Assembly (NCBI GenBank): GCA_949152475.1
Contig: OX424566.1
Span: 26,326,423 to 26,390,422, forward strand
Source of the DNA: Terebella lapidaria
Taxonomy: Eukaryota > Annelida > Polychaeta > Terebellida > Terebellidae
DNA: 64,000 bases
Direction of reading: 5' to 3'
In this document: positions 2,409-41,708 of the stretch, in pieces
Layout: the number at the start of each line of letters is the position of its first letter
Numbering within the stretch: position 1 is the first letter of the stretch
Made by a program: the position numbers and the translations under genes
The notes under the pieces: model-generated
Told to the model about the DNA's origin: nothing
Databases searched by the model: none
What the model saw: the letters and a program-made list of their open reading frames with translations, nothing else

Positions 2409-4976
2409 CTACTGGTTTTCCGACTCCTCGTCTGTCAAACTGTTCCGCTCACCAATCTCCTCGATTAGTCGACTCAAGCGCTCCTCCTTGGTCCGAGGTG
2501 GCGGCCGATCTGGACACTGGTACTTCCGATGACCCGGCTTCCCACAGTACCAACAGTCATCTGGTCCTGGCCTAGCGCTTGGTCCCTTGTTCTCAGCAGT
2601 GGCGGCCCTCGGCTTGATGGATAGCACCTGCTCACACAGCTCGATTAGTCGATCCAGCTTCCTGTCTTGGCTCTCAAAGAGCCCCTTGAAGTAGGGAAGT
2701 CTGGGTAGACCCGCTACGTTCGGCTGGTTGCTCTGCTGCCCACTGGTGGTAATCTCGCCTCCCTGCTGGTTCTTTAATAGCTGTAGGACCCGTCCTAGAG
2801 CTGGCTCGGAGTCCTCCGACTCTATGGACATCACCGGCTTCCCAGGCTTGGGTTTGACACATTCGTACTGGGTCACGAACGCTATGGCCTCCTCCATGGT
2901 CTTCATCTTCCTCATGAGCGCCATCACCTTCATGTCCCCATCTGGATGGCCCTTCCAGAAGTGGTCTAAGGCGATAGCCTCCTGAGCTGCGGAGTTCAGA
3001 TCCGGATAACCACGGCCGGCCAGTCGCTGCAACTCATAGCCGTACTGCTGGGGTGTCTCTGCCTTCCTGCGGGTTCTCTGTCCCAAGGTCGCCTTGTAGG
3101 ACTCCTCTTGACAGTCAGGGTCGAATCGTAGGGTCAGCTTGTCGGTCAGAACGTCGATGTCCCTCCGGTCTGCAGGACTCAGGCTGGTCAGCATTCGTCG
3201 CGCCTCTCCTGTCAAGCTCCCGGCTAAGTAGACGCCCTGTTCCCGCTTGCTCCATCCGTTGACCATTGCGATGACGTCAAAGTGGGCCCGGTACACCGGC
3301 CACTCTATGGAAGTCCCATCGAACTTGTCAGGGGTCAGCATCTTCCGGTTCCTTCTGCCGCTCTGATTCCAGGCTATGCTGTCCTCGGACGACGAGTCCT
3401 CCTGCCTCCGTCTCGGCCTAGGGCTTCGTCGGTGCAGCTGCGGTCCCCGCCTCGGTGGTCTCCTCCCCCGTGCTGGGTAACCATGGCTGCTGTCGGTCCC
3501 TCCATCAGATGAAGGCTCCTCATCGCCCGATGATGAGAAAGGGTGCTGTCTCCGGCCTTCTTGGGTGACTGAAATAGAAGCTGGATTTCTCCAGGAGGCT
3601 GGCTGTCTCGGTTGTCGACTGGGTGAAGACCTCTCTCTTCCGCGAACGCTGTCTTCCGCGAACCCTCCGCGAACACTGTCTTCCGCGAACCTTCCGCGAA
3701 CGGACTCCTCCGCCAACAGCTCCCGAAGAAGTTCTTCCGCGAACAGGCCTCTTCCGCGAACGCCGTCTTCCGCGAGTCTTCCGCGAACGGGCTCGTCCGC
3801 CAAGATGTCTCGGAGACGTCCCTCCACAAAAGATGTACGTCCGCGAACGCCATCTTCCGCGAGTCTTCCGCGAACCGGCTCATCCGCGAATGGTCTTCCC
3901 CGTCTATTCTGAAAAACTGGAAAGGAAGATTGGTCGCCTGGATCACTCCTTTCGTCGAGCCGCCGTCTGGGTGAACACTCCTCTCTCCCGCGAACACTCT
4001 CTTCCGCGAGTCGTCCTCGTCCGCGAACGTGGTCGTCCGCGAAGGGCCCTCCCCGGTCACAAGCGTCCTCGTCACCAAAGACTTCCCCTCGCCCACGAGC
4101 CCGTTCATCCACGAAGGATCCCCGGCTGCAAGCGTCCCTGTCGCCGAAGAATGCCTCTCGTCCGCGAATGTTCTCTTCCGCGAAAAGTCCTCTCCCTCTC
4201 GAGCTGCTCTCTTGGGTCGGAGCCCAAGTAACCCGTCCTCCAGTCACTCCCGTTTGTCGACTCGTCACACCAGACCGCTGCCCTGTTGCACCAGACTGCT
4301 GCTGGGACTGGTCCCAAAGCCGTCTCAATGCTGCATTCTCAGGAGGTGCCACACTTGGACTCTGCTCCGGTTGCTGTAGCCGATCCCTCCTCGTCCAGAT
4401 TGACGTACTCCGGTCCCAGCACTCGTCGGAACTCGGGGCCCCTCCTAACGCTCTCAAGGCAGGTTGACCTCTCCCTGTCTCGATCGTGCTGCCACCCAGA
4501 GTCGTGTCTGAAAAGAAAACGGTTGTCGGGTGTCTGGCTCCGGGGTCTCTGTTGACTCGTCGACTGGCCCATGGAAGGTCTCGACCTCCCTGGTTGCTCC
4601 TCACTCGTCGAAACGTCCCGTCTGCCCCTGGCTGTGAAGCTGCTCTTCCGCGAACGGTCGTCTTCCGCGAACGTTGTCTTCCGCGAACGGTCGTCGGCCT
4701 CTTCCGCCGAGGTCGTCTTCCGCGAACGGTTGTCGTCCGCGAACGTCTTCCGCGAACGGTCGTCTTCCGCGAACGTCTTCCGCGAACGGTCGTCTCCCTC
4801 TTCCGGAAAGGTCGACTTCTGCGAACCGCTGTCTTCCTCGTCCGCAAGTGAGGCCGTCCGCGAAGAGTCTTCCTCTTCACCTCCTGTCTTCCCTGGGGCA
4901 GTTTCGTCGTTTTCGCCGGACATGAGGGATGCTGAGGTTCGTTCCCTGGCAGTAGACCCTCGGGGATCCTGGTCAC
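2409..4976 (-). CDS. gag: Gypsy gag polyprotein with Arg-rich repeat region and CCHC knuckle
   Basis: An open frame of 855 codons on the minus strand. The N-terminal half is a low-complexity Arg/Glu-rich tandem repeat (units like VRGRRSRKTT and FAEDSVRGR) built from the TTCGCGGAA DNA motif. The middle (about 3330-2700) matches a retrotransposon gag domain (GTSIEWPVYRAHFDVIAMV, then YKATLGQRTRRKAETPQQYG). Near the C-terminus is one CCHC zinc knuckle, CWYCGKPGHRKYQC (about 2520-2565). Gag forms the particle shell and the knuckle binds the element RNA. The stretch nearest the primer-binding site has no ATG in this frame, so the listed start is only the limit of the open frame; the repeat region is open in more than one frame. 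Confidence 0.75.
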   Translation of the reverse strand: MTRIPEGLLPGNEPQHPSCPAKTTKLPQGRQEVKRKTLRGRPHLRTRKTAVRRSRPFRKRETTVRGRRSRKTTVRGRRSRTTTVRGRRPRRKRPTTVRGRQRSRKTTVRGRAASQPGADGTFRRVRSNQGGRDLPWASRRVNRDPGARHPTTVFFSDTTLGGSTIETGRGQPALRALGGAPSSDECWDRSTSIWTRRDRLQQPEQSPSVAPPENAALRRLWDQSQQQSGATGQRSGVTSRQTGVTGGRVTWAPTQESSSRGRGLFAEENIRGREAFFGDRDACSRGSFVDERARGRGEVFGDEDACDRGGPFADDHVRGRGRLAEESVRGREECSPRRRLDERSDPGDQSSFPVFQNRRGRPFADEPVRGRLAEDGVRGRTSFVEGRLRDILADEPVRGRLAEDGVRGRGLFAEELLRELLAEESVRGRFAEDSVRGGFAEDSVRGRERSSPSRQPRQPASWRNPASISVTQEGRRQHPFSSSGDEEPSSDGGTDSSHGYPARGRRPPRRGPQLHRRSPRPRRRQEDSSSEDSIAWNQSGRRNRKMLTPDKFDGTSIEWPVYRAHFDVIAMVNGWSKREQGVYLAGSLTGEARRMLTSLSPADRRDIDVLTDKLTLRFDPDCQEESYKATLGQRTRRKAETPQQYGYELQRLAGRGYPDLNSAAQEAIALDHFWKGHPDGDMKVMALMRKMKTMEEAIAFVTQYECVKPKPGKPVMSIESEDSEPALGRVLQLLKNQQGGEITTSGQQSNQPNVAGLPRLPYFKGLFESQDRKLDRLIELCEQVLSIKPRAATAENKGPSARPGPDDCWYCGKPGHRKYQCPDRPPPRTKEERLSRLIEEIGERNSLTDEESENQ
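3640..4195. repeat. TTCCGCGAA motif array inside gag (proximal block)
   Basis: The same TTCCGCGAA motif as in the LTR recurs many times within gag coding sequence, spaced irregularly at 10-30 bp. Read on the minus strand it gives FAED, SRKT or VRGR depending on frame, and none of the three frames of the motif creates a stop. Confidence 0.8.
4640..4870. repeat. TTCCGCGAA motif array inside gag (distal block)
   Basis: Second dense block of the motif, close to the primer-binding site; units such as TTCCGCGAACGGTCGTC repeat at 15-27 bp. Same sequence family as the U3 array. Confidence 0.8.
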
Positions 4977-5542
4977 GGCACCAAGTTGTGACGTTTGGTA
5001 ATGACTTGTTTTCGGTGTGGCCCAAAAAACCTGGTTTCTCTGATCGTATAGACTTTATGTAACTCCCGCTCGTTGTGATTCGAGAGCCGTCACTAATCTG
5101 GCGTTCCCCAACGCTGGTGTATCATCACTCCGTAGCTTACCGGCTTCACTTAGGCAAGAAGCAACTCAGATGTAAATAAATTGAAGATTTATATACATCA
5201 AATCAACTTACAATTGTATGGCTGGTCACCCACGTGACGTACAAATATGAAGTTCAGACATGGAGCACTGTATGATCACATTTCAAAAATAAATAGTGCA
5301 CGAGGGCACAACTAAAAAGAGTTCTTAGCCGGCGGCGTCTCTCTGTCCCTTCCCGTTGAAGTTTCCCGTCCCGTTTAGTCGAATGGTTTCTCCAGGTAGT
5401 CGGTCTAATCCCGGTTGACTCTAAGGCCCTGAAGAAGGAGTCGTCCGCACGGAGTTCGTCGAGTCCCTTGGCTGTGGCGGTGACGATCTCCCCACGGTCG
5501 ATGTCGCTGTTGCAGTGCTCCCAGAGCGGCCGTCCGCTCTCC

Positions 5543-5552
5543 CTTATATAGC
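5543..5552 (-). promoter_or_regulatory. TATA box of the Gypsy LTR
   Basis: Minus-strand GCTATATAAG lies downstream of the TTCGCGGAA array and roughly 560 bp from the LTR's 3' end, the position expected for the U3/R promoter of an LTR element. Inference from sequence only. Confidence 0.55.
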
Positions 5553-5587
5553 CAGGGTGGCTGCGTGCGCATCTTCGTCCGCGAAAG

Positions 5588-5830
5588 TATCTTCCGCACT
5601 CTTCTCCACGTGGTGAAGACTGCGTCCGCGAACGGTTCTTCCGCGAAGGCTCCTCTTCCGCGAACGGTTCTTCCGCGAAGGCTCCTCTTCCGCGAACGGT
5701 GCTTCCGCGACTGATGCTTCCGCTGATGATGCTTCGCAATCGTGCTTCCGCGAACGGTTATTCCGCGAACGATGCTTCCGCTGATGATGCTTCCACAATC
5801 GTGCTTCCGCGAACGGTGTCTTCGCAAGTG
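5588..5830. repeat. TTCCGCGAA motif array in the LTR U3
   Basis: Seven exact TTCCGCGAA copies plus variants (TTCCGCGAC, TTCCGCTGA, TTCGCAA) lie in about 240 bp just upstream of the TATA box. Part of it is a tandem unit of about 29 bp (CGGTTCTTCCGCGAAGGCTC and similar). The core is an inverted half-site pair TTC-N3-GAA. Confidence 0.8.
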
Positions 5831-9829: not shown

Positions 9830-11140
9830 CTCTGGATTCTTCCGAAAACGCTGTAAATATGCAAATAAGGAGCCGCCATTACTGAAATATTTGTTTTTGT
9901 TGATATCTTGAGAATTAAGCATCCAATCTCATTGAATGAGGTGTCTATACCTATGTTTTCATGGTCAAAGAAGATGATTATATCATTCAAAGGTGCCATT
10001 TATCTAAATTTAGTCATTAATATGCAAATTAGGAGCCACCATTACTGAAATATTTGTTTTTGTTGATATCTTGAGAACTAAGCATCCAAGCTCAAGGAAT
10101 GAAGGGTCTATACCTATGTTTTTATGGTCAAAGAAGATGACTATGCCATTTAAAGGTGCAATTTATGTAAATTTATTCATAAGTATGCAAATTAGGAACC
10201 GCCATTACTGAAATATTTGTTTTCGTTGATATCTTGAGAACTAAGCATCCAATCTCAATGGATGAAGGGTCCATACCTATGTTTTTATGGTCAAAGAAGA
10301 TGACTATGCCATTTAAAGGTGCAATTTATGTAAATTTATTCATAAATATGCAAATTAGGAACCGCCATTACTGAAATATTTGTTTTTGTTGATATCTTGA
10401 GAACTAAGCATCCAATCTCAATGGATGAAGGGTCCATACCTATGTTTTTATGGTCAAAGAAGATGACTATGCCATTTAAAGGTGCAATTTATGTAAATTT
10501 ATTCATAAATATGCAAATTAGGAGCCGCCATTACTGAAATATTTGTTTTTGTTGATATCTTGAGAACTAAGCATCCAATCTCGATGAATGGAGGGTCTAT
10601 ACCTATGTTTTTATGGTCAAAGAAGACGACTATGCCTTTCAAAGGTGCAATTTATGTAAATTCATGTATTAATATGCAAATTAGCAGCCGCCAATACTGA
10701 AATATTTGTTTTTGTTGATATTTTGAGAACTAAGCGTCCAAGCACAAGGATTGAAATGTCTATACTTATGTTTTTATGGTAAAAGAAGATGACTAAGCCA
10801 TTCATTTGATGCAATTTATGTGATTTTTTTCTCATTAATATGTAAATTAGGAGCTGTCCGACTGAAATATTTGTTTTTATTGATACATGTATCTTGAGAA
10901 CTAAGCGTCCAAACACAAAGATTGAAGTGTTTACACCTATGTTTTGATGGTCAGAGAAGATGATTACGCCATCCAAAGCTGTAATTTATTTAAATTTATT
11001 CATTATTATGCAAACAAGGAGCCACCATCACTGAAATATGTTTTTTGTCAATATCTTGAAAACTATAGCATCCAGTCACAATGATTGAAGTGTCTGTACC
11101 ATGTTTTTATGGTCAAAGAAGATGACTATGCCATTTAAAG
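9830..11140 (+). repeat. Tandem array, about eight units of ~163 bp
   Basis: The phrase TATGCAAATTAGGAGCCGCC recurs at about 9859, 10021, 10184, 10348, 10510, 10673, 10839 (TATGTAAAT) and 11008, giving a period of 162-169 bp. Other conserved parts are TTGTTGATATCTTGAGAAC and ATGGTCAAAGAAGATGAC. Units 3 to 5 are nearly identical and the outer units diverge. One inverted unit sits at 15210-15400 in the other arm. Confidence 0.9.
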
Positions 11141-11205
11141 GTGCGGTTTAGCTACAGAAAACGAAACAGTAGAAGAAAATGTGTGTACCACTTTAAGTTA
11201 TGTAA

Positions 11206-27949: not shown

Positions 27950-30900
27950 TGAGGCTCATTGCATATCTCGGAAACGGTGCGTCGTAGAGCGAAACGGACG
28001 TTATTTTCGGACTCGTCACCCTAGACAAACATGTCTAAGGGGTATTATGGATGAACTTTGACCTTGACCCGAAATTTTTTTCCGAGTCGGCATTTTTCGT
28101 TTTTTTTTCGATATCTCGAAAACGGTGCATCGTAGAGCGAAACGGACGTTATTTTCGGACTTGTCGACCCAGAAAAACATGTCTAAAGGGTATTATGGAT
28201 GAACTTTGACCTTGACCCAAATTTTTTTTGCCGAGTCGGCATTTTTCTTTTTCTTCGATATCTCAGAAACGGTGCGTCGTAGGGCGAAACGGACATTATT
28301 TTCGGACACTCAACCTAGACTAACATGTCTTAGGGGTATTATGGATGAACTTTGACCTTGACCCAAATTTTTTTCGCTGAGTCGGGATTTTTCGTTTTCG
28401 TCGATATCTCGGAAACGGTGCGTCGTAGAGCGAAACGGACGTTATTTTCGGACTCGTCACCGTAGACAAACATGTCTAAAGGGTATTATGGATGCCCTTT
28501 GACCTTGACCCGAAATTTTTTTGCCGAGTTGGCATTTTTCGTTTTCTTCGATATCTCGGAAACGGTGCGTCGTAGAGCGAAACGGACGTTATTTTCGGAC
28601 TCGTCGACCTAGACAAACATGTCTTATGGGTATTAGGGATGACCTTTGACCTTGACCTGAAATTTTTTTGCCGAGTCGGCATTTTTCGTTTTCTTCGATA
28701 TCTCGGAAACGGACGTTATTTTCGGACTCGTCGACCTAGACAAGAATTTCTTATGGGTATTATGCATGATCTTTGACCTTGACCCTGAAATTTTCTGCCG
28801 AGTCAGCATTTTTCGTTTTCGTCGATATCTCGGAAACGGTGCGTCGTAGAGCGAAACAGACGTTATTTTCGGACTTGTTGACTTAGACAAACATGTCTTG
28901 TGGATATTATGGATGACCTTTGACCTTGACCCGAAATTTTTTTGCCGAGTCGGCATTTTTCGTTTTCTTCGATATCTCGGAAATGGTGCGTCGTAGAGCG
29001 AAACGGACGTTATTTTCGGACTCGTCGACATAGACAAACACGTCTTATGGGTATTAGGGATGACCTTTGACCTTGACCTTGAATTTTTCTGCCGAGTCAG
29101 CATTTTTCGTTTTCATCGATATCTCGGAAACGGTGCGTCGTAGAGCAAAACGGACGTTATTTTCGGACTCGTCGACCTAGACAAACATGTCTTATGGGTA
29201 TTAGGGATGACCTTTGACCTTGACCCAAATTTTTTTTGCCGAGTCGGCATTTTTCTTTTTCTTCGATATCTCAGAAACGGTGCGTCGTAGGGCGAAACGG
29301 ACATTATTTTCGGACACTCAACCTAGACTAACATGTCTTAGGGGTATTATGGATGAACTTTGACCTTGACCCAAATTTTTTTCGCTGAGTCGGGATTTTT
29401 CGTTTTCGTCGATATCTCGGAAACGGTGCGTCGTAGAGCGAAACGGACGTTATTTTCGGACTCGTCACCGTAGACAAACATGTCTAAAGGGTATTATGGA
29501 TGCCCTTTGACCTTGACCCGAAATTTTTTTGCCGAGCCGGCATTTTTCGTTTTCTTCGATATCTCGGAAACGGTGCGTCGTAGAGCGAAACGGACGTTAT
29601 TTTCAGACTCGTCGACCTAGACAAACATGTCTTATGGGTATTAGGGATGACCTTTGACCTTGACCTGAAATTTTTTTGCCGAGTCGGCATTTTTCGTTTT
29701 CTTCGATATCTCGGAAACGGACGTTATTTTCGGACTCGTCGACCTAGACAAGAATCTCTTATGGGTATTATGCATGATCTTTGACCTTGACCCTGAAATT
29801 TTCTGCCGAGTCAGCATTTTTCGTTTTCGTCGATATCTCAGAAACGGTGCGTCGTAGAGCGAAACAGACGTTATTTTCGGACTTGTTGACTTAGACAAAC
29901 ATGTCTTGTGGATATTATGGATGACCTTTGACCTTGACCCGAAATTTTTTTGCCGAGTCGGCATTTTTCGTTTTCTTCGATATCTTGGAAATGGTGCGTC
30001 GTAGAGCGAAACGGACGTTATTTTTGGACTCGTCGACATAGACAAACACGTCTTATGGGTATTAGGGATGACCTTGACCTTGAATTTTTCTGCCGAGTCA
30101 GCATTTTTCGTTTTCATCGATATCTCGGAAACGGTGCGTCGTAGAGCAAAACGGACGTCATTTTCGGACTCGCCGACCTACACGAAAATGTCTAAAGGGT
30201 ATTAGGGATGACCTTTGACCTTGACCCGAAATTTTTTTGCCAAGTCGGCATTTTTCGTTTTCTTCGATATCTAGGAAACGGTGCGTCGTAGAGCGAAACG
30301 GACGTTATTTTCGGACTCGTCGACCTAGACAAACATGTCTTGTGGGTATTATGGATGACCTTTGACCTTGACCCGAATTTTTTTTGCCAAGTCGGCCTTT
30401 TTCGTTTTCTTCGAAATCTCGGAAACGGTGCGTCGTAGAGCGAAACGGACGTTATTTTTGGACTCGTCGACCTAGACAAACATGTCTTAGGGGTATTATG
30501 GATGAACTTTGACCTTGACCCGGAATTTTTTTGCCGAGTCGGCATTTTTCGTTTTCTTCATATGTCGGAAACGGTGCGTCGTAGAGCGAAACGGACGTAA
30601 TTTTCGGACTCGTCGACCTAGACAAGCATGTCTAAAGGGTATTAGGGATGACCTTTGACCTTGACCCTGAAATTTTCTGCCGAGTCAGCATTTTTCGTTT
30701 TCGTCGATATTTCGGAAATGGTGCGTCGTAGAGCGAAACGGACGTTATTTTCGGACTCGTCGACCTAGACAAACATGTCTTATGGGTATTATGGATGACC
30801 TTTGACCTTGACCCGAAATTTTTTTGCCAAGTCGGCATTTTTCGTTTTCTTCGATATCTCGGAAACGGTGCGTCGCAGAGCGAAACGGACGTTATTTTCG

Positions 30901-31480
30901 GACTCGTCGACCTAGACAAACATGTCTTATGGGTATTATGGATGACCTTTGACCTTGACCCGAAATTTTTTTGCCGAGTCGGCATTTTTCGTTTTCTTCG
31001 ATATCTCGGAAACGGTGCGTCGTAGAGCGAAACGGACGTAATCTCGGACTCGTCGACCTAGACAAACATGTCTAAAGGGTATTAGGGATGACCTTTGACC
31101 TTGACCTTGAAATTTTCTGCCGAGTCAGCATTTTTCGTTTTCGTCGATATCTCGGAAACGGTGCGTCGTACAGCGAAACGGACGTTATTTACGGACTCGT
31201 GACACTAGGCAAATATGTCTTAGGGGTATGTTGGGTCAACTTGATCCTGGGCCAATCTTTTTTGCTTTTTCATTTTTGGCCATATCTCGGAAACGATACA
31301 TCGTTGAATGAAATCTATGTTATTTTTGGACTCGTGGTACTTGACAAAGATATCTTAGGGGTATGTTGGGTGAAAATGTGCCTGGGCCAAATTTTTTTAT
31401 TCTGCTGAGTCGGCATATTTCATTTTCTGCCATATCTCGTTTATTTTCATCCATATCTCAGAAACCGTCGTCTTGGATTG
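27950..31480 (+). repeat. Satellite array, ~23 units of ~147 bp
   Basis: The unit order is GATATCTCGGAAACGGTGCG, TCGTAGAGCGAAACGGACG, TTATTTTCGGACTCGTCGAC, CTAGACAAACATGTCT, TATTATGGATG, TGACCTTTGACCTTGACC, then a T-run, GCCGAGTCGGC and TTTTTCGTTTTC. GATATCTC falls at 28403, 28550 and 28697, a spacing of 147 bp. One recurring unit lacks about 20 bp (spacing 127). The last two or three units towards 31480 are more divergent. The T-run is followed by a self-complementary GCCGAGTCGGC. Long open frames on the minus strand are a by-product of a stop-poor repeat, not genes. Confidence 0.95.
28208..30215 (+). repeat. Higher-order duplication within the satellite (1,008-bp period)
   Basis: The block starting near 28208 is repeated at +1008 bp (for example GGGCGAAACGGACATTATTT at 28281 and 29289, and the short unit at 28697 and 29705). 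The two copies differ at few positions, far fewer than neighbouring monomers do, so seven monomers (one short) were copied as a block recently. Confidence 0.85.
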
Positions 31481-35357: not shown

Positions 35358-38300
35358 TGGGGTTTGTTTCGGATTTCAAAATTTTCACAGGTTGTTGGGC
35401 AGTTATATACTAATTCCATCAGGTGTACAGTAGAAACAACTACATTCACACACTGTCTGCCCCTGATGACGCCAGTGTGTTCTTGGATGAACTATTTGGT
35501 CGGGCTTCATTTCTATATTTTCATTTCTAGGTTTTAATAGATTGATACTTACATGGCAACTCAAATGGACTTTCGGGGATGGATAAAAAATAATGAAGTT
35601 GACATTTTTCCAGACCTGTAAGCAGTGTTGGCATCGTTCGGAGTTGTTGGATATAGAGGCAGGATGAAATTATATGCTCTTGGATATGTACGTGAACATG
35701 GATTGAATGTAGCCTATTATAAAGTCAGTGCGATGTTTCAACATACAGTGTAGGCCTATCTCATCCATCATATGTCACAACCCTGGCACGTTTTACGTTT
35801 CAGTTTACGACGGGGCGTTTTTTTCTTTTAGGGCACGTTTGTTTCAGAATGTTTTTTTTTCTTGCTGTTGCCTCACTTTCAGACGGAAGTAACAACGGAC
35901 TCAGTGGTATTTGGTGACTTTTGCATGAAAGCAGATATTTTTTGCCTTCAGCCAGCCTCAGGGATATTGGGTATTCCCCGAAAGCAATGAGCTAGAGACG
36001 CTTGACTGATCTAAAAAATAACTCAATAAATCTAAAAAATAATCAATATCCCGAAATTCTGTGATTATATCGAAAATTTGACGAATTCCCTTCCGCTAAT
36101 CATGTAATTTCGATGTGTGGAATGGTCGGGCACTTCACTCAAAGAAAATAAGTGGTATGTAGTACATACAATTATTGGTATAGTGTAGTTATCGATGTGA
36201 GCACGGTGGCCTTTGGGCACCGTATGGATAGTGCTTTACAATAAGTTTAAATTATGGTAGAAATTGCTGAAAGGCATTTTGCTCACACATTCTAATTATA
36301 TCGCCACTGGCAAGGCGGTGGTTCCGATATTAGCCGGATCTTCACCCGCCTGAGGATCTTCCTTGCTCATTGATGGGGGATTGTAAAAACATTACCATTT
36401 ATAAAGAGCTTGGTAATGTTGTTACTTCGGGAATAGCCATGAGCACAATTCTCAAATTAAAATAACGTATCGATGCTGATTGTGTGATGATTCTCAAAGC
36501 AATATACAATGTGAAAACTTTAGTGATGAATGTATCATCCTATTACCATTACGTAGAGGCTAGTGTAATATTGACACGATTGTTCTCTTCGACCTTGATT
36601 GAAAAATAATGGTCTGATTCACTCGCCCAGAAGCATATCGCGGAATAATACATGACAGAGCAGGTGCTCTCAGTCATCGAAATCACAGGCTGTGTTACAT
36701 AGTACACAACTTCACACATTTGACATATTCATTCGAACTGCTAATAAGCATTGATCATAACATTCTTGGGCTATAAGTTGATGTTTGTTCAAGCTGATAA
36801 TGTTGAGGTTCAAAACGTCCAGTGTAACAAGGTGTTATACAGTCGCTAATAGCACATACCAGTCAACTAGGAATCTAGAAGAAGTATAATTATTATTCTG
36901 ATTCTGTCCGTTTGACTTCCAAGTGAAGTATGCCAAGTTATAAACCGATGCCATTCAACATCGCAAAATTATTGTCAAAATCTGGTGTAAAAAATCAGTG
37001 TATAGTTGCAGTATATCCTTGACACATACATTCACACCGTAAGCAATCGATTCTCAAATACACTTCGCCCATCATTCCCTATTCTTCATAACCGATATCT
37101 AGGCGCCAGTAACAGATGCACAGAGACACCACCTGATAATTTTCCGTGTATCTACCAATTTTATGATATATCACGCCAATTTAACCTGGTCGTTAATAGC
37201 AACCTAACCACTCAATCCATTCCCATCACCCTTCATGGCGTCTCAACTTCCTTCTCAAAGTCTATACCAGGATCTGAGTGATGTCTGTCTCTTGTGAAGA
37301 CATTTGTTTCTCGTGTCAACATATATTATATATGCCCATTCGATGAACATTGTGAAGGGTTATTAGTCCCATCATGTGATCAGGAGCGCATGACGGTTTC
37401 TTTTGGTGATTGGAATATACTATAACTCTCACAATATACATATCAACGTACATAATATAAGAAATATATTGAAATGAACATGCGTCTGACTAAATTCAGT
37501 ACGGAATGCTTAATAGTAATGCAGTTGATTGTCCATAAGTGTGAGACTAATTTATTCAGCACATCCTGAAGCGTAAAATCACATGTGCCGATGGAAGCCG
37601 ACCAAGTGGTCTAGCATTGGTATTATACTGAGCTCTTTTAGATGCACTGGCTAAAAGAGCCAGATTCACAATGTAATTAGTTGGGATGGACTCTATCATA
37701 TCCACCTTGCCTGATGGTTCGGAAAATGGACGAAACCTTAGGATGGCAGGACCGTTCACAGTATAAACCTCGACAACACTGGGCATTCGAGCCATCTTAA
37801 TAAGATGCACGAACCAATTTGGCTTTTACGTCTTCGTCTCAACCACTCTCGACGCCTGGAATACGCTTTGAAACTATCAACATTATTGTTATTATTTTGC
37901 GATGAGCGTCTAAATCGACCTGACCGTTAACTTTATCTCCACTAGATAGCTGATCTGTCTACAATTCACGCCGGTATATCATTGAACCAAGCGTACAACA
38001 GGTAGAAGAAATACAGCAGTATATCGGACCGCTTGCACTGTGTGTAATCCATTGTAGCATTTTCGTAGGCATATAATAATGTACTTCATTGAATGTGCTT
38101 TATTAATGTTTGTATATTGTACTTTATCAAATGTTTGTTATGCTATGAACTCAGACAAATATATCTTTGTCTGAGTTGATATGATTGTTATGGTGGTGAT
38201 GTTTGATGTGTTGTCATACAACAATAAACCACAACTATGCTGCAGGTGAGGCATGTGAATATTTCTCAAATTTCTCAGTGTAGCTCTGTAAAATTGGTTC
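35358..38300. other. Intergenic, no gene recognised
   Basis: GTGAAGTATGCCAAGTTATA (36923-36942) repeats a phrase from 14.6 kb. Open frames at 37006-37281 and 37556-37810 have no motif I recognise. Confidence 0.45.
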
Positions 38301-38308
38301 TAGGTTAG

Positions 38309-38710
38309 GCCATGTTGTGTTTTTTCTTTCTTTCCCGTCAACTTTTTTTTCGTAAAGTACCCGCCAGCCAGGAAAAAAAAACAAACAGAAAAAAAAAACA
38401 CAGACGTTTATCATCACGATACCATCTTTCTTCACAAAGTAACTCATGCCAAAAATGTAAAATAAATGGCATTTGACCTTTTGCTTAGCTATTAAATACT
38501 TTATTGATAATAACATAGAGGGAAACAGCAAAATGGAATTCATTTACTATCCTTCACGAAGTTCTGTGTTTTGGGGGCTAGAAAAACATCATTTTTGAGG
38601 GGAAAAAAGACAAAAAGTGTTTTTGGTTTGTGTTTTTTTTCTCAAAATAATTGCTATTTTCACCCGCCCGCTGACGGGAAACAAAGGAAAAAAACAACAC
38701 GGCCTTACTG
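38309..38710. repeat. ~400-bp imperfect foldback
   Basis: TTAGGCCATGTTGTGTTTTT followed by TTTCCCGTCA (about 38306-38342) is matched in reverse complement by TGACGGGAAACAAAGG...AACACGGCCTTA (about 38672-38706). A/T homopolymers fill much of the interior. MITE-like; superfamily unknown. Confidence 0.5.
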
Positions 38711-39226: not shown

Positions 39227-41708
39227 CTATCCGGGGAGCCCCGAATATAGTATGTATACATTTCTTTTACGTATCTCTATTTTGTAGACAACATCAGTGT
39301 ACGATTTATCGCAACACTGGTATCTGTACACATTCCGAGTGTAGTTTGTATCTGTGACTCGCCAAGTTGTGGGGTTGAATGTGGACAAGTCAATCTCCGG
39401 AAATATAGCCACATTCAGGTTCATGACGTCATACGTCCAACTCCCGAATTTCAAATAACACGAGAAAATATTCCCTGAGAACTCGTAGGGAACTGTGAGA
39501 TGTTGTGGTGAAATACCGGAAACAATTCCATCAAAATACACAGTGAATGGTATATTCCAGTCGATAGTGAAGTGCTGTTCCACGCTGAAAGAGAATATAT
39601 ATTAATTATTATTTCTATTAACCACATGGTTATACAATAACAACAGAAAAAATGTCGATCGAAACCACTGTAGGTCAATGAAGCGGGTTGTACTGTATTC
39701 ATAGCGTTTCGCGAAAGTGATTATCGGGACCTCTGCTGAGTTCTTATGACACTGGAGTTGATGATACTGTCTGGAACCCCATACAGAATAGAATTGCGGT
39801 AGTGAATAGTCTTTATATATATACGATCCACGTATTCCATATATGTATCCAGACAATCGGTGACGTGGCGTGTATCGCTGACTGTCCAAGTGGAATTAAG
39901 ATCACCAATGATGAAGCAGTCACGTGTGTCATTCTAGATATCTTGTACACGAATCGAAAAACCATGCCACACTTCGTTTATTTGAATCAATTTTGCAGTC
40001 TCCGTCTCCGAATTGATGGCGGTTTTCAACTGCACTTTATTCCAAGTAAAGATAACATCATTTTCATAACTTCATGTTTTCTTGTTATACAGCATCTTGT
40101 AATGCGTTTGCTAATTGAATATTTCACAATTAGCCACATAGCTTTGGAATGTTAGTGCAGTGAAACTGCTCAACGTTTGTGGTGTTCACGTCAATATATT
40201 ATCGTTATGAACATAAATACACAGTGCATCACAGTGCATTTACTGCATAAGTTATTCCAATATTATATTATTCAAAAGTTGGAAATGATTCATCAAGTTG
40301 GCAATGGTTCATCACCTGTTGTATAGTCTTATGTCGGGGGTCCAAATATTGGCAGCAAACAGTCGAACAGAGTCCACTCCATACTCCTCAATGTCCCATG
40401 TTAAGGCAGGGTCGTTCCACTCCTGTAATTACAGGCTATTCATCTTTGTAATGATGATTCATCTTTGTAATGATGAGATTCCTTATTCAAGGAAAATACT
40501 CTTTTCGTTTCGGGACTTTAATTCTATGATTGCACCTCTACCTAATCTTGAGTATAACTAACGTCTGCATTTTATTTACCAGTATCAGCCACACTTGAAG
40601 AGTGACGAAACCGTCTTGGTGGAGAGAATCGGTAATACCAACAACATCTTGTAGACTCAGTCCCAATTTCACATTTGTTGGCATCCAGTCTCTTCCGGAA
40701 GGACGAGCCAGTTTCTGGTATCCATCTAACAACTCGTTTATCAGTGCTGCTTCCCGTCTTTGTGAATTCGGAAGTACCTGTTTGAAAAGTGGTGGCGAAC
40801 AGTGAAATGTGATTGGTTCAAAGTTCCCAGATATGAGAGATGTGGTTGGGCCACATTAAGTTGGGCCACATTAAATAATGCTGGCTACCAATATTGCTTC
40901 CTTTCCGACTGATTTCTGTTGAATGATATTATATCAAAATATGTTAGTTATATACACAAGCACAAAGATTTCTGTCACTAAAACTTGGAAATATTCATAA
41001 CTCAGAATTTCTCTAACCTCTTTTTATGGCAAGTAATCTACATTACTAGACGGAAAAAATATTATGTTGTACATGCATTGCTTCTGTCTGGTACTTACAC
41101 ATGAACACACATATTTGCTTATCTACTATCATAAATATACAATAATAATAATAATAATAATAATTGTGATTTTTCATGTAACGTTTTCTATGTAAATCAC
41201 CTATCAGGTGCAGCCACTGGCGCAAGGTGACTAAGTCACACATACATTTGCAAACACTGCCAATCGGGTACTCATTTATACGACTGATTGAACCGAGACA
41301 CATTGTGATAAATACCTTGCCCAAGGGTGTTAGACAGTCAACACAACTGCGCCATGGCTCGAACAAGCTACCTGCTGGTCACGAGACAAGCGCCCAAACT
41401 GACTGCGCTACCTGCTCTCACAATTTTATAAGGGCACAGTTCTTGTTCCCATGCGCTAATGATGGGATCGAAAATCTGATCAAGGCCTAAACTGGCTCCA
41501 TATCTGGAACGTGACATTAGGTTTTACTCACCCAATGTGGGGCTGGAAGATCACTTCACTACATGGAGTGTGAAAACCATTCGCACCATAAACCTGATCG
41601 GTATCACTACAAAAATAAAATATCCCGCAACTATCAATAGAAACTTACCGGAGTTTGGATAGTGCTGTACACACTATACAGTGTCATTATCGCCATCGGA
41701 GCTTTCAT
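39227..41708 (-). CDS. Acetylcholine-binding-protein-like soluble pLGIC ligand-binding domain
   Basis: Four minus-strand exons: 41708-41649, 40777-40580, 40422-40316, 39584-39227. They join in phases 0, 0 and 2 through clean splice sites (donors CCG|GTAAGT, CTG|GTAAAT, CAG|GTGATG; acceptor TTCTCTTTCAG before exon 4), giving about 240 residues. The fold is the nicotinic receptor ligand-binding domain: TNVKLGLSLQDVVGITD and VWLIL-EWNDPALTW (exons 2-3), NIWTPDIRLYN (loop A), FGSWTYD (loop B) and YQCCDKSYTD (loop C, vicinal cysteines). A stop follows RKRNVYILYSGLPG with no membrane helix, and 240 residues matches secreted AChBPs (about 230). Such proteins bind acetylcholine as soluble pentamers. 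Odd: the first Cys-loop cysteine is absent and the loop is short. The exon 1 signal sequence is weakly hydrophobic, so exon 1 is the least certain. Confidence 0.8.

What the first reader, a model, noticed from the sequence alone, without database searches (positions are those of the whole stretch)
39227..41708. AChBP-like soluble receptor domain that has lost half of its Cys-loop
Seen: four exons with matching phases encode a nicotinic ligand-binding domain of about 240 residues that stops before any membrane helix. The agonist-site residues are kept (loop A LYN, loop B SWTYD, loop C YQCC...Y, loop D VW). The defining disulfide loop is altered: the second Cys (FSCYLKFGSW) is there, but no Cys exists at or near the first position, which reads VPYEFSG, and the loop is several residues shorter. 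Known: AChBPs and eukaryotic pLGICs normally have both cysteines; prokaryotic relatives lack them. Inference: a secreted acetylcholine-binding protein folding without this disulfide.
Basis: partly seen in the sequence, partly recalled or inferred. Interest (0 to 1): 0.8.

Follow-up and report, generated by a model that had tools for sequence, protein, structure and literature searches.

The report
Soluble acetylcholine-binding-like protein missing a cysteine
A marine worm genome holds an intact-looking gene for a probably secreted relative of the acetylcholine receptor in which one of the two cysteines of the family's signature loop has become a tyrosine, a small but real oddity within a known protein family.

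Summary
On the minus strand, four exons (41708-41649, 40777-40580, 40422-40316, 39584-39227) with GT/AG borders encode a 240-residue nicotinic ligand-binding domain that stops before the membrane helices. Three paralogues modelled here share the four-exon structure and phases. The first Cys-loop cysteine is replaced by Tyr (codon 39487-39485): paralogues read LTVHC...C, the window LTVPY...C. The short loop is not special to this gene: 14 short-loop loci were found, 13 have a readable loop of 8-11 residues, and the crystallised Capitella AChBP has 8; receptors have 13. What is unusual is the lost cysteine: the other 13 short-loop loci keep both, as do 58 distinct canonical loops read here. The tree nests the gene among cysteine-bearing AChBP-like genes, so the loss is secondary. 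It leaves an unpaired second cysteine. Codon-position bias and the intact frame speak against an old pseudogene but not a very recent one, and the signal peptide looks weak. Cys-less relatives are already known in lophotrochozoans, so this is a new variant of a known kind. Binding, pentamer assembly and expression are untested. Part of the genome's receptor family could not be read.

The parts
41649..41708 (-). exon 1: start codon and signal peptide MKAPMAIMTLYSVYSTIQTP, donor gtaagt
   Evidence: 60 nt and phase 0 as in three paralogues; the only donor that passed the filters of a scan from 40.8 to 47 kb; hydrophobic core weak, 1.70 against 2.44-2.82
40580..40777 (-). exon 2: N-terminal helix region to loop D (VW)
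   Evidence: 44-49% identical to paralogue exons
40316..40422 (-). exon 3: loop A region (WTPDIRLYN), ends in phase 2
   Evidence: 64-69% identical to the exons of L010-L013
39227..39584 (-). exon 4: Cys-loop region, loops B and C, stop TAG
   Evidence: Pfam PF02931 on this exon alone 3.8e-8
39485..39487 (-). codon TAC (Tyr) at the column of the first Cys-loop cysteine
   Evidence: TGC or TGT (Cys) in the three paralogues shown
39458..39460 (-). codon TGT, second Cys-loop cysteine (residue 164), left without its partner
   Evidence: after residue 20 the protein holds cysteines 164, 212, 213 only
39311..39322 (-). loop C YQCC (vicinal cysteine pair)
38500..38505 (-). possible polyadenylation signal AATAAA, about 720 bases past the stop (a second starts at 38104)
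   Evidence: motif match only

Best explanation
The gene is an intact member of an annelid AChBP-like clade with a short Cys-loop. It encodes a probably secreted nicotinic ligand-binding domain without a channel. On its own branch the first Cys of the loop became Tyr (TGC/TGT to TAC), with a neighbouring His to Pro and one residue fewer than its nearest paralogues. I infer that it folds as the usual beta-sandwich pentamer without that disulfide, as Cys-less pLGICs do, and that the loss was tolerated because in a soluble protein the loop no longer couples binding to a pore. It then binds acetylcholine or a similar cation between subunits, using the aromatic residues of loops A, B, C and D, and buffers or scavenges it outside cells. 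Shown: gene structure, the replaced cysteine, kinship, constraint over most of the branch. Inferred: secretion, folding, pentamer, ligand and role.
For: Domain match 2.7e-31. Same four-exon structure and phases as three paralogues. The window sits with the C16, C1 and C14 genes (support 83/67) inside a starred set of five short-loop genes (96/84); the 12 short-loop rows used, Capitella AChBP included, are split from 26 receptor rows by one branch (92/91). Cys at C1 in the other 13 short-loop loci makes the loss secondary. No stop, frameshift or splice loss in 240 codons. Changes unique to the window: 60 of 264 sites at codon positions 1+2 against 25 of 54 at position 3 (Fisher p 0.0007); the split of changes does not differ from that of the pooled paralogues (p 0.45). 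Agonist-site aromatics and vicinal Cys pair kept. No membrane exon found in the window.
Against: Longer branch than its near kin (1.11 against 0.36-0.48), and a higher ratio of changes at positions 1+2 to position 3 (about 0.49 against 0.33-0.40 in the paralogues, from the rates). Weaker signal-peptide core (1.70 against 2.44-2.82). Some positions alike in the paralogues changed (GSWTYDG to GSWTYDV, EPY to KSY). Cysteine mutations in Torpedo and glycine receptors abolished toxin binding, surface expression or currents (quoted in PMC4795631, passage). No RNA, no orthologue and no protein data; no other animal genome could be searched here.
Confidence: 0.62

Rival explanations
1. A very recently dead duplicate: the lost Cys, the weakened signal peptide and other changes are early decay of a gene no longer used.
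For: Longer branch than its near kin; weak signal core; half a disulfide is usually harmful (general knowledge); in the same clade one copy of the C14 pair already has a frameshift relative to the other.
Against: Intact frame and splice sites. In simulated neutral decay the gene stays intact in 36% of runs at 1% divergence, 5% at 3% and 0.5% at 5% with indels assumed at 0.1 per substitution, and in 62%, 25% and 9% without indels. Codon-position bias persists.
Confidence: 0.2
2. The orphan cysteine has a job: it links subunits of two rings. In AChBP the Cys-loops lie on the C-face, so Cys164 of two pentamers could form disulfides and give a di-pentamer.
For: Three cysteines in the mature protein, an odd number. 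Precedent: Biomphalaria BgAChBP2 has one unpaired cysteine and is held to form disulfide-linked subunit dimers; its Cys-loops lie on the C-face (PMC3423370, passages).
Against: In BgAChBP2 the unpaired cysteine is elsewhere (C71), and its loop disulfide is kept. Nothing here shows that Cys164 is exposed.
Confidence: 0.12
3. Sequencing error or a rare allele at the Tyr codon.
For: One base separates TAC from TGC; reads are not held here.
Against: The neighbouring His to Pro change and the residue missing in the same loop are separate changes at the same place.
Confidence: 0.03
4. The transcript continues into membrane helices or uses another exon that supplies the cysteine.
For: The C-terminus IRKRNVYILY resembles the start of receptor M1 (by eye).
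Against: TAG in frame; no membrane-domain match in the window; C1 and C2 columns lie in one exon here and in three paralogues; the exon-4 frames of the other short-loop loci also end without M1-M4.
Confidence: 0.03

Closest known systems
Capitella teleta AChBP (PDB 4AFG)
   Same: Annelid, soluble, loop of 8 residues, LKV.C at the place of LTV.Y (alignment)
   Different: Keeps both loop cysteines; overall identity to the window protein not computed
Own-genome paralogues L047 (C16), L048 (C1), L049 (C14)
   Same: Same four exons, phases, loop context LTV, agonist-site motifs; 41-44% identity
   Different: Both loop cysteines, stronger signal-peptide core; L049 has a hydrophobic C-terminal tail
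Gastropod AChBPs (Aplysia, Lymnaea, Biomphalaria)
   Same: Soluble nicotinic ligand-binding domain
   Different: Loop cysteines kept: 12 residues between them in chimera chain 4zjs; strictly conserved in Biomphalaria (PMC3423370, passages)
Cys-less pLGICs of invertebrates and prokaryotes (PMC4795631, PMC9874803)
   Same: Fold expected without the loop disulfide
   Different: Channels with membrane helices that keep the FPxD-type motif and lack both cysteines; here only the first is lost and FPxD is absent

Membership tests
acetylcholine-binding proteins (AChBP) | nicotinic ligand-binding domain | tested here: met
   PF02931 E 2.7e-31
acetylcholine-binding proteins (AChBP) | no transmembrane domain | tested here: met
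   in-frame TAG; no membrane-domain match in the window by tblastn
acetylcholine-binding proteins (AChBP) | signal peptide | tested here: inconclusive
   exon of right length, phase and place, hydrophobic core weak; no predictor on hand
acetylcholine-binding proteins (AChBP) | aromatic agonist site and vicinal cysteines in loop C | tested here: met
   LYN, SWTYD, YQCC...Y, VW; loop E residues not tested
acetylcholine-binding proteins (AChBP) | Cys-loop disulfide, called strictly conserved in PMC3423370 | tested here: not met
   Tyr at the first Cys column
acetylcholine-binding proteins (AChBP) | pentamer that binds acetylcholine | not testable with these tools
   needs protein
short-loop annelid AChBP-like clade (by descent) | groups with short-loop genes and Capitella AChBP apart from receptors | tested here: met
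   92/91 for 12 against 26 rows; window inside a 96/84 set
Cys-less pLGIC channels | loss of both cysteines, FPxD-type motif kept, four membrane helices | tested here: not met
   second Cys kept, no FPxD, no membrane exons found

The most novel reading that the evidence does not exclude
A working secreted acetylcholine-binding protein that has dropped half of the superfamily's signature disulfide and uses the freed cysteine for a new bond, for instance joining two pentamers face to face.
Probability: 0.1. Interest if true: 0.55.

Novelty: new variant of a known kind. Interest (0 to 1): 0.33.

Why it matters
Whether the Cys-loop disulfide is needed to fold the nicotinic domain has been argued from mutants and from bacterial channels. 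A natural set of soluble paralogues, one without the first cysteine, would allow a direct test in a protein that needs no membrane. It also suggests that once the loop no longer touches a channel, its length and its disulfide become free to drift.

Tried and rejected
Considered and dropped: (1) Loop shortening as a special trait: the other short-loop loci with a readable loop and Capitella AChBP share it. (2) Another gene with a lost first Cys: the C1:16.30 Mb locus (L055) seemed to read HG in place of HC, but a first Cys in matching context lies upstream of a repeat array inside the loop. (3) Among 64 regex matches for canonical loops, 7 lacked a Cys at one end: 6 are chance frames or other parts by eye, and one (second copy in L063) starts near an exon edge and reads C-X14-C. 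(4) A structure prediction was not run: the stated rule admits only proteins that the DNA gives letter for letter, and the spliced protein is not one; exon 4 alone is half a domain. (5) Species: an annelid by mitochondrial gene order, not named further. (6) A first tree held no receptors because my motif was wrong, and placed the window only weakly; the corrected tree is. (7) McCormack 2010 on Capitella AChBP is not held.

Limits of the survey: PF02931 has 183 matches in the genome (a lower bound; the printed list was cut). I asked only for listed matches that span the loop, and 32 of those asked for were never fetched. Of 102 nuclear loci held (overlaps included; two mitochondrial pieces and two COX1 loci set aside), 74 hold a canonical loop, 23 are the short-loop loci (14 places), 2 are membrane-domain loci without a loop match, and 3 (L001, L093, L100) hold both cysteines without the Trp that my motif asks for. 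The motif asks for both cysteines, so a second, Cys-less copy in a locus that also has a normal one could be missed. The tree used 26 of 35 receptor rows that were long enough, and left out the short-loop loci L050, L055 and L098.

Full report
What is there. The window lies in a 761.6-Mb animal genome (G000:C13:26326423-26390422). On the minus strand, four exons (41708-41649, 40777-40580, 40422-40316, 39584-39227) join in phase to a 240-residue protein ending at TAG 39229-39227. Intron borders are GT/AG. Without exon 1, the joined product matches the nicotinic ligand-binding domain (PF02931, E 2.7e-31, residues 10-209) and in the PDB best the alpha-7 receptor (3.8e-26) and, among AChBPs, Capitella AChBP (4e-23).

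The gene model. The nearest own-genome relatives by exon 4 are C16 (48%), C1 (41%) and a C14 pair (42 and 48%). I built gene models for three of them (C16, C1, C14a). Each has four exons of the same phases, with e1 60 nt and e3 107 nt in all four genes. Their first exons encode hydrophobic signal peptides; the window's first exon has the same length and phase but a weaker core (maximum 9-residue hydropathy 1.70 against 2.44-2.82) and only 22-24 of 60 identical bases. A scan upstream of exon 2 to 47 kb, with filters for donor score, length and phase, found this one donor. So exon 1 is likely, not proven.

The lost cysteine. The three modelled paralogues read LTVHC-X9-C; the window reads LTVPY-X8-C, anchored on both sides by PQxLTV and CxLKFGSWTYD. 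Codons are CCC TAC where the paralogues have CAC TGC, CAC TGT or CAT TGT. After residue 20 the protein has cysteines 164, 212 and 213 only, so Cys164 has no partner within the subunit other than the vicinal pair.

How unusual it is. Among fetched loci, 14 places have the short-loop type: window, L047, L048, L049, L050, two in L051, L052, L053, L054, L055, L096, L097, L098. Read to the first stop in the exon-4 frame, none runs on into M1-M4; three (L049, L050, L097) end in a hydrophobic tail. Between the two Cys positions lie 8-11 residues in the 13 with a readable loop; in L055 a repeat array interrupts the loop. The other 13 hold both cysteines, counting L055 and counting L050, which has a frameshift relative to L049 upstream of the loop. 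Canonical receptor loops number 58 distinct sequences with both cysteines and 13 residues between (57 of 64 motif matches under the filter, the other 7 explained in Tried and rejected), plus three more in L001, L093 and L100. Capitella AChBP has C-X8-C. So loop shortening is a trait of the class and the missing cysteine a trait of this gene, as far as the family could be read: 32 loop-spanning matches that I asked for were not fetched.

Kinship. In a maximum-likelihood tree of exon 4 with 12 short-loop rows (Capitella included) and 26 receptors, the two classes are separated by one branch (92/91). The window lies inside a starred set of five short-loop genes (96/84), next to C16, C1 and C14 (83/67; its exact place among them is weak, 85/4), on a longer end branch (1.11 against 0.36-0.48). 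Since its relatives keep the cysteine, it was lost, not primitively absent.

Is it alive? Sites identical in the other three paralogues but changed in the window number 27 of 120, 33 of 144 and 25 of 54 at codon positions 1, 2 and 3. Positions 1+2 change less than position 3 (p 0.0007). The window has somewhat more changes at positions 1+2 relative to position 3 than its pooled paralogues, not significantly (odds ratio 1.3, p 0.45). Neutral decay would break such a gene fast: 36%, 13%, 5% and 0.5% of simulated copies stay intact at 1, 2, 3 and 5% divergence with indels, 62%, 38%, 25% and 9% without. Long-standing death is very unlikely; recent death is not excluded.

How it may work. By family knowledge, five subunits form a ring with ligand sites between neighbours; Tyr of loop A, Trp of loop B, the tyrosines and vicinal cysteines of loop C and Trp of loop D are kept. 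In a soluble protein the Cys-loop has no pore to couple to; [quoted passage not shown] I think that the protein folds without the disulfide and binds acetylcholine or a related cation outside cells. The free Cys164 might instead link rings: BgAChBP2 of Biomphalaria has one unpaired cysteine and is held to form disulfide-linked dimers, and Cys-loops lie on the C-face (PMC3423370, passages).

What is known. Cys-less channels are recorded in annelids, molluscs and others, with few secondary losses (PMC4795631, passages), in schistosomes (PMC9874803, first of three parts), and 8 of 141 oyster ligand-binding domains lack the Cys-loop (PMC6896357, passage). Annelid nicotinic genes are expanded (52-129; same paper). 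Alpo1-7 of Alvinella keep the disulfide (PMC4801368, passage); passages of PMC10338036 on Alpo4 gave nothing on a lost Cys-loop. I found no report of an AChBP lacking one loop cysteine in the searches, which cover only openly licensed papers, seen as listings apart from the passages named.

Host. In the 15,973-base mitochondrial contig the 22 tRNAs that ARAGORN found lie on one strand, and the order (cox1-N-cox2-D-atp8-Y-G-cox3-Q-nad6-cob-W-atp6...H-nad5-F-E-P-T-nad4L-nad4-C-M-M-rrnS-V-rrnL) I recognise from memory as the annelid pattern. COX1 was matched by Pfam; the other protein and rRNA genes were named by eye or by place. The paired trnM recalls terebelliform and related worms (recalled, not tested).

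Verdict. The finding is real and correctly placed; its core, the lost half of the Cys-loop, is a secondary change in one AChBP-like paralogue. By descent it belongs to the AChBP-like clade, but I do not file it as a full AChBP, because the conserved disulfide was tested and not met.

Noticed in passing
L049 4433-4820 and L050 (C14), L097 (C1:25.98 Mb): These short-loop AChBP-like proteins end in a hydrophobic tail after a small-residue stretch (L049 SAASPLEPRNLCLLVILAFSVLY; L097 NGAPKCGLSLATLLAVALVKLVL), as GPI-anchored proteins do. A membrane-tethered AChBP would be unusual; no predictor was on hand, and one paper search listed none.
   Followed up: partly
L050 exon 4 against L049: The two C14 copies, about 222 kb apart and nearly identical, differ by a 4-base length change in exon 4 that shifts the frame of the L050 copy.
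   Followed up: partly
L055 about 4975-4370: A repeat array sits between the two cysteines of the Cys-loop of a further AChBP-like locus (C1:16.30 Mb), either in a new intron or in a broken gene.
   Followed up: partly
L045, L046 (contig C438): Mitochondrial genome with two adjacent trnM genes, annelid gene order (recalled), and a long repeat after atp6 that translates as alternating Tyr-Met.
   Followed up: partly
G000:C417:44633-46450: A second COX1-like gene with in-frame TGA codons on a contig at least 46 kb long, distinct from the host mitochondrial contig: perhaps another organism's or a transferred copy.
   Followed up: no
window 3636-5823: Several arrays of short units around TCTTCCGCGAACGG.
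   Followed up: no
window 27963-31229 and 9856-11144: Long tandem arrays with units of 147 and 163 bases.
   Followed up: no
G000, whole genome: At least 183 matches to the nicotinic ligand-binding domain and 162 to the membrane domain, counted exon by exon: a large receptor family.
   Followed up: partly
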